NCBI GenBank assembly: GCA_002082245.2
Contig: NBTC02000002.1
Span: forward strand, 62,001 to 126,000
Source of the DNA: Yersinia enterocolitica
Lineage (GTDB): Bacteria > Pseudomonadota > Gammaproteobacteria > Enterobacterales > Enterobacteriaceae
Reading direction: 5' to 3'
Length of the DNA: 64,000 nt
The notes beneath the pieces are model-generated. The model did no database searches. It was not told the origin of the DNA and saw only the letters and a list, made by a program, of their open reading frames with translations. A program made the position numbers and the translations under genes. Below are positions 39,069 to 43,039 of the stretch, piece after piece. The stretch's first letter is position 1. Each line of letters begins with the position of its first letter.

Positions 39069-39209
39069 TTTGTCGCGTCAGGGCCTTTGGCTATCTCGGA
39101 ATAAGCCATATACAATGCAATGTATTGTCGAGACCCCGCAGACTGGCTTGTTTTATCCAGACAGAAAATTTTAATCCGACAAGAAATTTTAATTAGGCAG
39201 GAACTCAGC

Positions 39210-40244
39210 ATGGAAAAAACGCGCAAGCGCCGTAATACCGGGCGGGTCACTCTATCGGATGTGGCGAATTACGCTGGGGTAGGGTCGATGACTGTTTCCC
39301 GAGCGCTGCGAACGCCGGAGCAGGTTTCAGATAAGTTACGTGAGAAGATAGAGCAAGCGGTTGAAACATTGGGATATATTCCTAATCGCACGGCAGGGGC
39401 TTTGGCTTCGGGGCATAGTGATACCGTGGCGGTTTTGATTCCGTCGCTGACCGATAAAGCCAGCTCCCGATTTATGCAGGCGCTGCAACAGATTCTGAAC
39501 AAAAATGAATTTCAGTTATTGCTGGGTTGCCATGAATATAGTCAGCGGAAAGAAGCTGAAATACTGATGACGTTACTGCAAAGCAATCCGGCAGCCGTGG
39601 TGATATTTGGCTCACAACTGGCAGATAAAACCTATCAACTGCTTGAACGGGCCAATATTCCTACCGTTAATGTGGTGGGGTCCTATTTTAAAGGGGCGAA
39701 AATTACCCTTGAGGCGGCATTTTTTGAATCCGCTTATGCATTAAGCCGTCATTTACTGGAGCGCGGTTATCACAATATTGGTTTTATTGGCGCTCATATG
39801 GATAACCGCTTACAACGTCAGCAACTGAATGGCTGGCATAAAGCGATGCTGGAACATTATAAAAATGCTGATCAAACCGTCACCACACCAGAAACAGCCA
39901 GCTTACAGTTTGGTCGCTATGCCTTGACGGAAATTCTGCAACGCCAGCCTGAGCTGGATGCGGTTATTTGCAGCCACGAAGATATCGCTTTGGGGGTACT
40001 GTTTGAATGCCAACGTCGCTTGCTGAAAATTCCCGGCGGGATCGCGGTTGCCTGCCTGGATGGTTCTGATAACTGCGATCAGACTCACCCGACGCTGACG
40101 TCGATGCGTATCGATTACCGGAAGATGGGTAAAGATGCTGGCAAGATGTTGATCGAACTGCTCGAGAGTGAGGACGATGGCGAGTTGAGTGAACCGGTTA
40201 GCCAGAGTTTCAGCTATAAATTTGAACCACGGCAGAGTACCTGA
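39210..40244 (+). CDS. LacI/GntR-type transcriptional regulator of the PTS operon
   Basis: A 344-residue LacI-family regulator. N-terminal helix-turn-helix and hinge (VTLSDVANYAGVGSMTVSRALR, in about residues 14-35, then LGYIPNRTAGALAS) are followed by a periplasmic-binding-protein-like sensor. HTH and sensor resemble GntR of E. coli more than LacI. ATG 39210 has AGGA 8 to 11 bases upstream; the frame is open further upstream but reads a tandem KILIRQEILIRQEL that looks non-genic. It is divergent from the PTS genes, and three palindromic operators lie between. The inducer is unknown. A bidirectional terminator follows at 40262-40288. Confidence 0.92.
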   Translation: MEKTRKRRNTGRVTLSDVANYAGVGSMTVSRALRTPEQVSDKLREKIEQAVETLGYIPNRTAGALASGHSDTVAVLIPSLTDKASSRFMQALQQILNKNEFQLLLGCHEYSQRKEAEILMTLLQSNPAAVVIFGSQLADKTYQLLERANIPTVNVVGSYFKGAKITLEAAFFESAYALSRHLLERGYHNIGFIGAHMDNRLQRQQLNGWHKAMLEHYKNADQTVTTPETASLQFGRYALTEILQRQPELDAVICSHEDIALGVLFECQRRLLKIPGGIAVACLDGSDNCDQTHPTLTSMRIDYRKMGKDAGKMLIELLESEDDGELSEPVSQSFSYKFEPRQST

Positions 40245-40261: not shown

Positions 40262-40288
40262 AAAGGAAAACCGCCCCGCAGGGCGGCT
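40262..40288. terminator. Bidirectional terminator between the LacI gene and the timP-like gene
   Basis: The hairpin CCGCCC-CGCA-GGGCGG has AAGGAAAA on its left and CTTACC on its right. For the minus strand it reads GGGCGG followed by TTTTCCTTT, a good terminator, nine bases after the small-peptide stop codon. For the plus strand it can end the LacI-type gene. Confidence 0.8.
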
Positions 40289-40296
40289 TACCGGGC

Positions 40297-40428
40297 TTAC
40301 TTGCCTGACGTGTTGATTATCACCGTGATTGAGTTGTTGAAAATACGCCAACCCCCATTCCCGGATGTTAACAATGCGCCAAATACAACGAGCACAATAC
40401 AAAAGTACCGTTTCATTGTGCGGTCCAT
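40297..40428 (-). CDS. timP: Small hydrophobic membrane peptide, TimP-like type I toxin
   Basis: A 43-codon frame (or 39 from the second Met at 40416). From that Met it reads MKRYFCIVLVVFGALLTSGN, then WRIFNNSITVII and ends TSGK. The basic start and hydrophobic core look like a signal peptide or membrane anchor. The first ATG lies in the loop of a hairpin (arms GCGGTC/GACCGC, 40420-40439), and no strong ribosome site precedes either ATG. The -10-like TACAAT (minus strand, 40568-40573) and the terminator at 40262-40288 predict an mRNA of about 300 nt. A divergent RNA matches its leader over 17 bases. This is the layout of enterobacterial timP/timR (formerly ryfA, about 300 nt, encoding a 38-residue inner membrane toxin). 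Sequence homology to TimP is not verified. Confidence 0.7.
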   Translation of the reverse strand: MDRTMKRYFCIVLVVFGALLTSGNGGWRIFNNSITVIINTSGK

Positions 40429-40480
40429 GCTTAGACCGCTTCACGCCAGCACCACCGGTGATACTAGCGTGAATACAAGT

Positions 40481-40497
40481 ACAGGGTTGCACTTGCG
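40481..40497 (-). promoter_or_regulatory. Antisense target site in the timP-like mRNA leader
   Basis: On the plus strand this reads ACAGGGTTGCACTTGCG, identical over 17 bases to 40632-40648, the predicted 5' end of the divergent RNA. In the minus-strand mRNA it is therefore an exact complement of that RNA. It lies about 53 to 69 bases before the first ATG, too far to cover a ribosome site directly, which suggests control at an upstream ribosome standby region. Mechanism is inferred by analogy. Confidence 0.75.
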
Positions 40498-40567
40498 TTA
40501 CGGCCAATGGATATCCTTCCCTTAAACCGATGCCCGCTTGCTTAAGGCGGCGAAAAGGTCCGCCGCG

Positions 40568-40573
40568 ATTGTA
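40568..40573 (-). promoter_or_regulatory. Candidate -10 element for the timP-like mRNA
   Basis: The minus strand reads TACAAT here, one mismatch to the consensus. No good -35 is seen 16 to 18 bases upstream, so the promoter may be weak or activated. Transcription would begin near 40561. Confidence 0.4.
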
Positions 40574-40596
40574 CACGAATGCACCCCAGCCGATAC

Positions 40597-40625
40597 TTGA
40601 CAGTGAATAGCAACTGGCCCAAAAT
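40597..40625 (+). promoter_or_regulatory. Promoter of the TimR-like RNA
   Basis: A perfect -35 TTGACA at 40597-40602 and CAAAAT at 40620-40625 are separated by 17 bases. Start would be near 40632, exactly where the 17-base complement to the peptide mRNA begins. A perfect -35 agrees with constant expression of an antitoxin RNA. Confidence 0.65.
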
Positions 40626-40631
40626 ATCAGA

Positions 40632-40743
40632 ACAGGGTTGCACTTGCGATATGTTGGTAACAGTTATTTTGATACTAACAACCCCGCTGGAATGGCCGCT
40701 TACCGGACCAGCACAGAGAAACCGCCTATATGGCGGTTTTTTT
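40632..40743 (+). ncRNA. timR: TimR-like antisense small RNA
   Basis: A predicted RNA of about 112 nt transcribed divergently from the timP-like gene. It starts with ACAGGGTTGCACTTGCG, which can pair perfectly with the peptide mRNA leader. It ends in a strong intrinsic terminator (AAACCGCC/GGCGGTTT with a TATAT loop and seven T, 40719-40743). Divergent position with a short 5' pairing region is the layout known for TimR/timP, IstR-1/tisB and OrzO/zorO. It has no open reading frame of note. Confidence 0.7.
40719..40743 (+). terminator. Intrinsic terminator of the TimR-like RNA
   Basis: Eight-base-pair stem AAACCGCC/GGCGGTTT, five-base loop TATAT, and a run of seven T. The nearest plus-strand gene upstream (LacI type) already has its own terminator about 450 bases earlier, so this one points to a separate short transcript. 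Confidence 0.9.
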
Positions 40744-40830
40744 GTTGGCGCATTTTACCGATGCGGTCTTTTGGTGAGTGTGGTTGCGAGGTGAAAACGT
40801 TCTAACCCCAATTTATACATCGCTTTGCCA

Positions 40831-40885: not shown

Positions 40886-43039
40886 TTAAGATGCGCTGGC
40901 GTCAGCCTGAGCGGATTGAATCGCCGTCAGTGCTACGGTATAGACGATATCGTCAACCAATGCACCACGGGACAAATCGTTAACTGGCTTACGCATACCT
41001 TGCAGCATCGGCCCGATGGAGATCAGGTCAGCAGAGCGTTGCACCGCTTTATAGGTAGTGTTGCCGGTGTTCAAGTCTGGGAAGATGAACACGGTGGCTT
41101 TACCTGCAACCGGTGAGTTAGGCGCTTTGGATTTAGCCACATCCGCCATGATTGCCGCGTCATATTGCAACGGACCATCGATGATCAAATCTGGGCGTTT
41201 TTCCTGTGCCAGACGGGTCGCTTCACGTACTTTTTCGACATCGCTACCCGCACCGGAATTACCGGTAGAGTAAGAGATCATCGCCACACGTGGTTCAATG
41301 CCGAATGCCGCAGCAGAATCCGCAGATTGGATAGCAATCTCAGACAGTTGTTCAGCCGTAGGATCTGGGTTGATTGCACAGTCACCATAAACCAGAACCT
41401 GGTCAGGCAGCAGCATAAAGAACACCGAAGAAACCAGTGAACTGCCCGGTGCGGTTTTGATCAACTGCAATGGTGGGCGGATGGTGTTTGCGGTGGTATG
41501 TACTGCACCGGAAACCAGACCATCAACTTCACCTTTTTCCAGCATCAGGGTGCCGAGAACGACGTTGTCTTCCAACTGTTCACGCGCGACCACTTCGGTC
41601 ATGCCTTTGCTCTTACGCAGCTCAACCAGACGCGGAACATATTGCTCACGTACAGCAACAGGATCGATGATTTCAACGCCTTTGCCCAGCTCAACACCTT
41701 GCGCGGCAGCAACGCGTTGGATCTCTTCTGGGTTACCCAGCAGCACACAAGTTGCGATACCGCGTTCAGCACAGATAGAAGCGGCTTTAACGGTACGTGG
41801 CTCATCGCCTTCTGGCAGCACGATGCGTTTACCCGCTTTACGGGCCAATTCGGTCAGCTCGTAGCGGAATGCTGGTGGTGACAAGCGACGTGAACGCTCA
41901 GACGTTGCGCTCAGAGAGTCAATCCAATCACTGCTGATATGGCTGGCAACATAGTTTTGCAGCTTTTCAACACGCTCATGGTCATCTGCAGGGACTTCCA
42001 GATTGAAGCTTTGCAGGCTCAAAGAGGTCTGCCAAGTATTGGTATCAACCATAAATACTGGCAAGCCAGTTTGGAAGGCACGTTCACACAGGCTGTTGAT
42101 ACGCTCATCAATAGCGTAACCGCCAGTCAACAGGATGGCACCAATTTCAACGCCATTCATGGCTGCCAAACAAGCAGAAACCAACACATCAGGACGATCG
42201 GCTGAGGTAACCAGCAGAGAACCCGGGCGGAAGTGTTCCAGCATATGCGGAATGCTACGAGCACAGAAAGTCACAGATTTAACGCGGCGAGTGTTGATAT
42301 CACCTTTGTTAATGATGGTGGCTTTCAGGTGCTTGGCCATATCAATGGCGCGAGTTGCAATCAACTCGAAGCTCCACGGCACACAGCCGAGAACTGGCAG
42401 TGGGCTGTTGGCAAACAGTTGGCTTGGATCGATGTTCGCGACGCTGGCCTTAGTGGAGTCATCAAAGATTTCAGACAGGTCAGGGCGGGTACGACCTTGT
42501 TCATCAACCGGCGCATTCAATTTGTTAATGATAACGCCAGTGATGTTTTTGTTTTTACTGCCACCGAAACTGGAACGAGCCAGTTCGATACGCTCTTTCA
42601 ACTGATCTGGTGAGTCATTACCCAGAGCAATAACAAAGACGATTTCAGCATTCAGGGTTTTAGCAATTTCATAGTTCAATGCATTGGCAAACTGATGTTT
42701 GCGTGTTGGCACCAAGCCTTCGACCAGAACCACTTCTGCGTCTTTGGTATTTTCGTGATAACGGGCAACAATCTCTTCCATTAACACGTCTTGCTGGTTA
42801 GAACTCAGCAAGGTTTCCACATAACCCATATTCAGCGGCTCAGCAGCAGTGATGCTGGAGTTCGCACGAATGATGGTGGTGGTTTGGTCAGGTGCATCAT
42901 CACCGGCACGAGGCTGGGCGATTGGCTTGAATACGCTCAGGCGTACACCTTTTTGTTCCATGGAACGGATGACACCCAAGCTTACGCTGGTTAAACCAAC
43001 GCTGGTGCCGGTAGGAATCAACATTATTGTACGGGACAC
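40886..43039 (-). CDS. pta: Phosphate acetyltransferase
   Basis: Interconverts acetyl-CoA and acetyl phosphate; with AckA it forms the main acetate overflow and acetyl-phosphate pathway. The 717-residue protein is of the long enterobacterial type: an N-terminal P-loop NTPase-like domain ([20 protein letters not shown]), a central DRTGG domain, and the C-terminal catalytic domain from about residue 390 (ITLPEG-type start here read as [16 protein letters not shown], then [21 protein letters not shown] and [15 protein letters not shown]). All are in normal order. It lies downstream of ackA, separated by 281 bases of tandem repeat, unlike the short gap in E. coli. Confidence 0.98.

What the first reader, a model, noticed from the sequence alone, without database searches (positions are those of the whole stretch)
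40262..40743. Probable type I toxin-antitoxin locus (TimP/TimR-like) hidden between a LacI gene and pta
Seen: a 39-43 residue minus-strand peptide with a basic start and hydrophobic core (MKRYFCIVLVVFGALLTSGN), a terminator directly after its stop, and a divergent RNA of about 112 nt with a perfect -35, a 17-base spacer, CAAAAT and a strong terminator. The predicted first 17 bases of that RNA are an exact complement of the peptide mRNA leader. Predicted mRNA length is about 300 nt. Known: ryfA of E. coli/Salmonella is about 300 nt and encodes the 38-residue inner membrane toxin TimP, repressed by the divergent RNA TimR. Inference: this is its homologue or an unrelated system with the same layout. 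Such a locus is normally missed by annotation because of its size.
Basis: partly seen in the sequence, partly recalled or inferred. Interest (0 to 1): 0.88.

Follow-up and report, generated by a model that had tools for sequence, protein, structure and literature searches.

The report
TimP/TimR toxin–antitoxin pair in Yersinia
Between two ordinary genes of a Yersinia genome lies a copy of the known timPR gene pair, predicted to make a tiny membrane-damaging toxin and an RNA that would block its production; across relatives the matching stretch of the two partners varies widely yet nearly always still matches, and copies of the pair also sit on plasmids and phage-plasmids, which they would likely help to persist.

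Summary
Window 40263-40563 (-) matches the Rfam ryfA (timP mRNA) model end to end: 270.3 bits, gathering 80, E 7.3e-75. It carries a 39-codon TimP frame and a divergent TimR-like gene whose first 17 nt exactly complement the leader; within 2 mismatches this 17-mer has no third site in the genome. Stem-loops SL1-SL4 and the SL1-SL3 pseudoknot known from Salmonella timP are kept, with compensatory changes. It is timPR, not a look-alike. timPR, with a Yersinia enterocolitica copy, is already in print (PMC7667032, PMC11228461): a new member of a known kind.

Beyond the finding: within Yersinia the pairing segment differs four to six times more than the rest of the locus, yet stays matched. Because the antitoxin is divergent, the match is a direct repeat; five loci show it collapsed to one copy, losing both promoters and SL1. 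One case: two Serratia plasmids alike around the locus but for one base and that 150-bp deletion. The site is occupied in 11 of 25 genomes. timPR also lies on conjugative plasmids and, near a ParA gene, on E. coli phage-plasmids. Expression is untested.

The parts
40263..40563 (-). timP (ryfA) mRNA, 301 nt
   Evidence: RF00126, 270.3 bits, gathering 80, E 7.3e-75, model 1-296/296
40297..40416 (-). TimP reading frame, 39 codons plus stop (MKRYFCIVLVVFGALLTSGNGGWRIFNNSITVIINTSGK)
   Evidence: variable columns by codon position 4/5/21 of 39 each among 9 different Yersinia sequences; NCBIfam NF040796 toxic_TimP E 1.8e-8, 34.5 bits, cut-off 45
40268..40289 (-). timP terminator-like hairpin
40568..40573 (-). 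possible timP -10 box (TACAAT)
   Evidence: read by eye; not listed by the scan
40515..40558 (-). leader stem-loop SL1; 40526-40532 is its pseudoknot arm
   Evidence: pairs counted on 60 distinct leaders, placed
40475..40496 (-). leader stem-loop SL2, predicted TimR target
   Evidence: complementary to TimR
40441..40472 (-). leader stem-loop SL3; 40453-40459 is its pseudoknot arm
   Evidence: pseudoknot helix 99.0% of cells paired, 4 of 7 pairs with changes on both sides
40420..40439 (-). leader stem-loop SL4 just before the start codon (hides the ribosome site in Salmonella timP, PMC11228461)
40481..40497 (+). repeat copy in timP SL2 (ACAGGGTTGCACTTGCG)
40632..40648 (+). repeat copy at the predicted 5' end of TimR
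40597..40625 (+). timR promoter TTGACA-17-CAAAAT
40632..40743 (+). timR, predicted antitoxin RNA of about 112 nt
   Evidence: layout, fold z -4.9, complementarity; 5' end predicted only
40715..40744 (+). timR terminator hairpin and T run
   Evidence: sequence
39120..40244 (+). LacI-family regulator, left neighbour (longest frame)
   Evidence: its homologue in Y. pekkanenii matches LacI-type models below their cut-offs
40886..43039 (-). pta, phosphate acetyltransferase, right neighbour
   Evidence: homologue named by NCBIfam

Best explanation
The stretch is a timPR locus of the ryfA family, predicted to be a type I toxin-antitoxin pair in which the 301-nt mRNA would encode the 39-residue inner-membrane toxin TimP and the divergent RNA TimR would silence it by pairing with leader stem-loop SL2. 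Shown here: the full ryfA match, the frame with coding-type variation, the 17-nt exact match, the leader fold with a covarying SL1-SL3 pseudoknot, and cognate matches kept across relatives whose pairing segment differs. Taken from work in Salmonella (PMC7667032, PMC11228461), not tested here: the pseudoknot is needed for translation of timP, TimR binding breaks it, and TimP damages the inner membrane. Inferred: the promoters and terminators act as drawn; TimP stays silent while TimR is present and is made when TimR runs out. Also inferred: because the pairing segment exists as two direct copies about 150 bp apart, slippage or recombination between them removes both promoters and SL1 in one step, a loss route that should spare the cell.
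For: RF00126 270.3 bits, sole copy in the genome. Pairing segment: 17 nt, 0 of 300 shuffles, 2 genome sites within 2 mismatches. Structure on 60 distinct leaders: 93.7% of cells paired, 27 of 39 pairs with changes on both sides, 0 of 500 shuffles as high, slid controls 36.9-48.0%; pseudoknot helix 99.0% paired, 4 of 7 pairs with double changes. Coding: variable columns 4/5/21 by codon position; 7 of 24 variable codons change the residue. Cognate match: score of at least 10 in 63 of 67 intact loci against 4.75% of 4,422 non-cognate pairs; TimR's own timP is its best or joint best target in 54 of 67. Within 10 intact Yersinia loci the 17-nt segment differs at 0.337 per site per pair, SL1 0.092, SL3-SL4 0.073, frame 0.058. 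Collapse scars.
Against: No transcript, peptide or toxicity was measured. The NCBIfam TimP naming cut-off is not met (34.5 of 45 bits). No timP promoter passes the simple scan. 14 of 25 genomes of the genus lack the locus at this site, so it is dispensable. Four of 67 intact loci (L011, L102, L106, L112) score under 10 for their own pair, and in 13 of 67 another timP scores higher than TimR's own; the E. coli locus scores only 7 by this ungapped measure. Near-perfect pairing is not universal. TTGAC lies before the TimR segment in 32 of 63 loci only (shuffled control 5.75%, made on those of the loci held under L numbers).
Confidence: 0.86

Rival explanations
1. The locus makes a regulatory RNA (RyfA in the older sense) acting on other mRNAs; the short frame matters little and TimR simply tunes RyfA.
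For: RyfA was studied as a regulatory RNA in Shigella, where no protein was detected under the conditions tested and RyfB1 lowered RyfA1 (passages of PMC5333039), and in uropathogenic E. coli (PMC8205139, start of abstract in the listing).
Against: Coding-type variation (4/5/21 by codon position), the frame at one fixed place in relatives, and the published toxic, translated TimP of Salmonella (PMC7667032).
Confidence: 0.06
2. A relic: in this genome timPR is silent or decaying, on its way to the empty site seen in sister species.
For: Patchy presence, 11 of 25; a collapsed copy at the same site in Y. aleksiciae and a remnant on Y. ruckeri plasmids.
Against: In the window every part is intact: both copies of the repeat, the timR promoter, the pseudoknot arms, the frame and both hairpins. 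Collapsed copies keep open frames too, so an open frame alone proves little.
Confidence: 0.07
3. An unrelated toxin-antitoxin system that happens to share the layout.
For: Low protein identity to many TimP-like peptides (27-85% to the window's, 21 compared).
Against: End-to-end ryfA match at E 7.3e-75 and shared compensatory leader fold.
Confidence: 0.01

Closest known systems
timPR of Salmonella / ryfA of E. coli (RF00126; PMC7667032, PMC11228461)
   Same: mRNA length and fold, SL1-SL3 pseudoknot, frame position, hydrophobic start, divergent gene complementary to SL2, terminators
   Different: Other site (lacI-pta here; between sseA and sseB in E. coli); pairing segment of other sequence; longer ungapped match here (17, against 7 in E. 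coli); protein 33% identical to the copy L002, which groups with E. coli's in the tree
timPR of Yersinia enterocolitica 8081, used in the structural alignment of PMC11228461 (passage)
   Same: Genus and, by the paper's inclusion, family
   Different: Its sequence and site were not fetched here, so identity with the window's copy is untested
RyfA1/RyfB1 and RyfA2/RyfB2 of Shigella dysenteriae (PMC5333039, passages)
   Same: Two siblings with a variable segment; RyfB1 lowered RyfA1 but not RyfA2
   Different: Read there as regulatory RNAs; here the co-variation is counted over 67 intact loci
hok/sok, tisB/istR, zorO/orzO type I systems (mentioned in passages of the papers seen)
   Same: Small toxin, antisense RNA
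   Different: timP mRNA is not processed; its translation needs a pseudoknot (PMC11228461; tisB needs one too, passage of PMC11295053)

Membership tests
timPR / ryfA (RF00126) | mRNA matches the ryfA covariance model above its gathering score | tested here: met
   270.3 bits against 80
timPR / ryfA (RF00126) | Frame of about 38 codons about 145 nt into the mRNA, basic start and hydrophobic core | tested here: met
   ATG at position 148 of 301, 39 codons; mean hydropathy 2.57 over residues 4-17, -0.17 over 18-39
timPR / ryfA (RF00126) | Divergent gene complementary to the timP leader, followed by a terminator | tested here: met
   17 nt, hairpin and T run; by sequence only, the RNA itself was not seen
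timPR / ryfA (RF00126) | Four leader stem-loops and a 7-bp SL1-SL3 pseudoknot | tested here: met
   Window pairs CG, AU, UG, CG, GC, GC, UA; covariation over 60 leaders
timPR / ryfA (RF00126) | Toxic inner-membrane protein repressed by TimR | not testable with these tools
   Needs experiments
NCBIfam NF040796 toxic_TimP (naming model of subfamily level) | Score above the curated cut-off of 45 bits | tested here: not met
   34.5 bits, E 1.8e-8. The locus is therefore not filed under this subfamily model; it is filed under the ryfA/timPR RNA family
Type I toxin-antitoxin | Antitoxin is an RNA that pairs with the toxin mRNA | tested here: inconclusive
   Complementarity and its co-variation shown; pairing in the cell untested
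Plasmid addiction module (post-segregational killing) | Stabilises a replicon by killing cells that lose it | not tested
   Only location is shown: conjugative plasmids and phage-plasmids, in two phage-plasmids read one small gene away from a ParA-family gene

The most novel reading that the evidence does not exclude
timPR is a travelling, fast re-keyed addiction module. Toxin and antitoxin recode their pairing segment together, so copies on plasmids, phage-plasmids and chromosomes become mutually blind, and a resident TimR cannot disarm an incoming timP. The pairing itself is a direct repeat and so a built-in fuse: one slip between the two copies deletes both promoters and SL1 and ends the addiction without killing the cell. 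The chromosomal copy in this Yersinia would then be one stage of a gain, re-keying and self-erasure cycle rather than a settled stress gene.
Probability: 0.33. Interest if true: 0.75.

Novelty: new member of a known kind. Interest (0 to 1): 0.47.

Why it matters
The natural role of timPR is open: in Salmonella native TimP gave low membrane stress but no growth effect, and its authors refrain from naming a function (PMC7667032, section heading, passage). timPR near a ParA gene on phage-plasmids and on conjugative plasmids gives a direct test: plasmid stability with and without it. The cognate pairs differ so much within one genus that they form a natural set for learning how an antitoxin RNA tells its own target from a sibling's. 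The repeat collapse suggests a rule for divergent type I systems whose antitoxin pairs through its 5' end: they carry their own deletion track.

Tried and rejected
Single-protein and alignment searches for named relatives failed on length or conservation; a degenerate DNA pattern then found 40 named stretches. Pfam has no match. Weak ryfA matches of 24-27 bits are not timP: all 7 that I read (G188d, G065b, G041, G165, G179b, G024, G019) lie in one conserved coding frame that I recall as the end of pyruvate dehydrogenase E2, so the family tally of 34 of 198 genomes overstates by at least 4; other weak matches were not all checked. One origin of the locus as a clade on the pta tree is rejected (p-AU 4.8e-29), but pta itself may have been exchanged, so I do not claim several gains; the 11 Yersinia lacI-pta copies form one supported group in the timP tree (95/91). 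Phage records: no match with the window, one unannotated 1.9-kb record with an Erwinia-type query. Viral contigs: 0 with the general pattern, 1 with the phage-plasmid type, which shows both the timP frame and the TimR-side copy of the segment. Four of the 24 'plasmid' hits are E. coli records of 1.4-4.9 Mb, probably chromosomes, and were set aside; the 517-kb Enterobacter hit shows the kdp-phr neighbours of the chromosomal site. Exact ends of the insert could not be set, because empty and filled sites are too diverged.

Rows dropped: from the locus set for the match matrix, L019, L021, L023, L029, L042, L043, L044 (no frame found by my filter) and L087, L095, L100 (too little upstream); identical loci were merged, leaving 71, of which 4 collapsed, leaving 67. 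The leader alignment used 61 of those 67; the six copies held only under extra-copy names were left out. The peptide alignment used 22 peptides picked by hand. One phage-plasmid record (L144) showed no TimP frame by my filter and was not examined further.

Full report
What is there. The window stretch 40262-40743 sits between a LacI-family gene (ending 40244, +) and pta (40886-43039, -). On the minus strand 40563-40263 it matches the Rfam ryfA model over all 296 positions at 270.3 bits, E 7.3e-75; the genome has no second match. The authors of PMC7667032 (outline, passages and the first part of the Results seen) suggest renaming ryfA to timP, because it encodes a toxic inner-membrane protein silenced by the divergent RNA TimR. 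On the plus strand a promoter TTGACA-17-CAAAAT precedes a predicted RNA of about 112 nt that ends in a strong hairpin with a T run.

The 17-base match. ACAGGGTTGCACTTGCG lies at 40481 and 40632 on the plus strand, so the predicted start of TimR is the exact complement of the timP leader. None of 300 shuffles has such a repeat, and in the 5.07-Mb genome these are the only two sites within 2 mismatches.

Fold. In Salmonella, translation of timP needs a pseudoknot between leader stem-loops SL1 and SL3, and TimR binding at SL2 breaks it (PMC11228461; abstract, passages and two Results sections seen). I aligned 61 leaders (60 distinct), wrote the four stem-loops and the pseudoknot from the window sequence and counted pairs. 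93.7% of cells pair, against 36.9-48.0% for slid versions; 27 of 39 pairs have changes on both sides; no shuffle of 500 was as high. The pseudoknot helix pairs in 99.0% of cells and 4 of its 7 pairs show changes on both sides. SL4 is weaker (84.7%), failing by eye mainly in a divergent group. Because the structure was written from one of the sequences, the slid control leans in its favour; and related sequences can exceed every shuffle without any structure, so the double changes are the better evidence.

Protein. Among 9 different Yersinia sequences of the frame, variable columns by codon position are 4, 5 and 21 of 39 each, as for a translated gene. The NCBIfam TimP model matches at E 1.8e-8 but under its naming cut-off, 34.5 against 45 bits; Pfam has nothing. 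Automatic annotation may therefore miss it, although E. coli records do name timP: 5,375 of 5,426 E. coli genomes hold a match, and the ten listed rows carry the name.

Pairing changes in step. For 71 non-identical loci (67 intact) I scored the best ungapped match between the region upstream of each timP and each timP leader. Own pairs score at least 10 in 63 of 67, median 14; of 4,422 non-cognate pairs 4.75% do, median 6. TimR's own timP is its best or joint best target in 54 of 67. Within ten intact Yersinia loci the segment differs at 0.337 per site per pair, against 0.092 (SL1), 0.073 (SL3-SL4) and 0.058 (frame), while own scores stay at 11-17. In genomes with several copies the partners are mostly distinct: in one genome with three intact copies predicted duplexes are -46.8, -34.9 and -36.4 kcal/mol for own pairs, while cross pairs range from -17.4 to -37.7, so one cross pair there is as strong as an own pair; in two other genomes cross pairs stay at -10.1 to -18.3 against -25.6 to -39.8. 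In E. soli one copy's TimR scores 8 against both timPs. Near-identical TimP proteins of E. coli phage-plasmids come with two pairing types, each matched by its own TimR at 17-18; the cross score is still 13, so those two types are not fully blind to each other. That complementarity is kept between species was reported in PMC7667032, and RyfB1 acting on RyfA1 but not its sibling in PMC5333039 (passages); what is added here is the count, the relative rate and the within-genome comparison. Against a simple rule: L011, L102, L106 and L112 score under 10, and the E. coli chromosomal pair scores 7.

A fuse. Because TimR is divergent and pairs through its 5' end, the pairing segment is a direct repeat about 150 bp apart. 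In four loci the TimR side runs straight into the timP side through one copy, so both promoters and SL1 are gone: Y. aleksiciae (L040), Y. similis (L041), L007 and the fourth copy of G027. The clearest case is a plasmid pair from river water of one stated locality: Serratia pJSRIV001_1 and pJSRIV002_1 agree over a 1,100-bp block but for 1 mismatch and one 150-bp gap; 150 bp is the spacing of a 21-bp repeat, present twice in the first and once in the second. The rest of the two plasmids, which differ in length, was not compared. All five keep an open TimP frame (in L040 it runs 3 codons past the usual stop), which suggests that the events are recent. Named genomes were tied to unnamed ones by equal contig lengths.

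Site and spread. In the 25 genomes of the genus the ryfA model rings in 13. Eleven hold the locus between lacI and pta (10 intact, 1 collapsed) and 14 do not: 10 with a measured spacer of 74-86 bp, 3 with a short spacer read by eye, and Y. similis with 320 bp of other DNA. In other genera the neighbours differ: sseA-sseB (Pseudocitrobacter, E. coli), kdpA-phr and rraA-MIP channel (two sites in Enterobacter soli), fadE (Serratia M24T3), prfC and a tag-like gene (Erwinia).

Mobile copies. A blastn of the window stretch against 72,556 plasmid records finds 24. Two Serratia conjugative plasmids hold an intact copy (ryfA 214.0 bits each) with no feature listed under it, a third the collapsed one; the plasmid gene table is incomplete by its own description, so 'unannotated' means not listed there. 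Seventeen records are Y. ruckeri plasmids with only the end of timP; one was read, with a relaxase gene nearby. The Y. similis remnant also lies near a relaxase gene. An Erwinia-type query adds ten records of 46-50 kb from E. coli and E. albertii; the one whose gene list I read has capsid, tail, terminase and repA genes, so it is a phage-plasmid, and timPR lies one small gene away from a ParA-family gene, as in the E. albertii record. Nine of the ten have an intact TimP frame with a matching TimR segment, score 17 or 18; two tested score 135.0 and 135.8 bits for ryfA. In the E. coli genome collection 0 of 5,525 places lie on plasmids, with the window as query. Literature: whole-word searches and a search on repeats (15 of 30 papers listed) show no title or abstract start that reports timPR on plasmids or phage-plasmids, or its loss through the repeat; the listed papers were not read through, so this does not prove absence from print.

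How it most likely works. TimR, from the stronger predicted promoter, would pair with SL2 of any timP mRNA that has formed the pseudoknot and so stop TimP synthesis; if TimR falls, by promoter shutdown or loss of the replicon, timP mRNA would be translated and TimP would enter the inner membrane. Mechanism and toxicity rest on the Salmonella work. On a chromosome such a pair is dispensable (14 of 25 genomes lack it here); on plasmids it would act as an addiction module. That last step is inferred from location alone.

Verdict. The added interest is in the matched drift of the pairing segment, the collapse route and the plasmid and phage-plasmid copies.

Noticed in passing
L132 3999-4297 (pGMI14-004_3) and L133, L137-L143: timPR with no listed feature, one small gene from a ParA-family gene where read (L132, L133), on 46-50 kb E. 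coli / E. albertii phage-plasmids, with two pairing types and near-identical TimP.
   Followed up: partly
L127 4979-5281, L131 2979-3281, L128 4979-5259: timPR with no listed feature on Serratia conjugative plasmids; in pJSRIV002_1 it lacks exactly the 150 bp between the repeats.
   Followed up: yes
L126 / L011 (genome G115): Two timPR copies in tandem about 600 bp apart; one has lost its start codon, and its TimR matches the neighbour's timP better (score 13) than the neighbour's own TimR does (6).
   Followed up: partly
L057 (genome G203), between timR and pta: About 700 bp of extra DNA next to timPR that looks like an IS200-type insertion (recalled, not searched).
   Followed up: no
L129 3002-3154 (Y. 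ruckeri pYR4): Only the end of timP is left, between a TrlF ATPase gene and an Abi gene near traI; 17 plasmid records have the match.
   Followed up: partly
G019, G024, G041, G065, G165, G179, G188: The ryfA model gives weak false matches (24-27 bits) at the end of one conserved coding gene.
   Followed up: yes
L107 7488-7594: Rfam Ysr224 (133.9 bits) lies about 90 nt upstream of the collapsed timP of Y. similis.
   Followed up: no
L024-L028, L030, G188b, G188c: A divergent timP group, below the ryfA gathering score, with its pairing segment mostly of GTGGCA type and TimR about 150 nt upstream.
   Followed up: partly
plasmid collection: Four E. coli 'plasmid' records of 1.4-4.9 Mb look like chromosomes or parts of them.
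   Followed up: no
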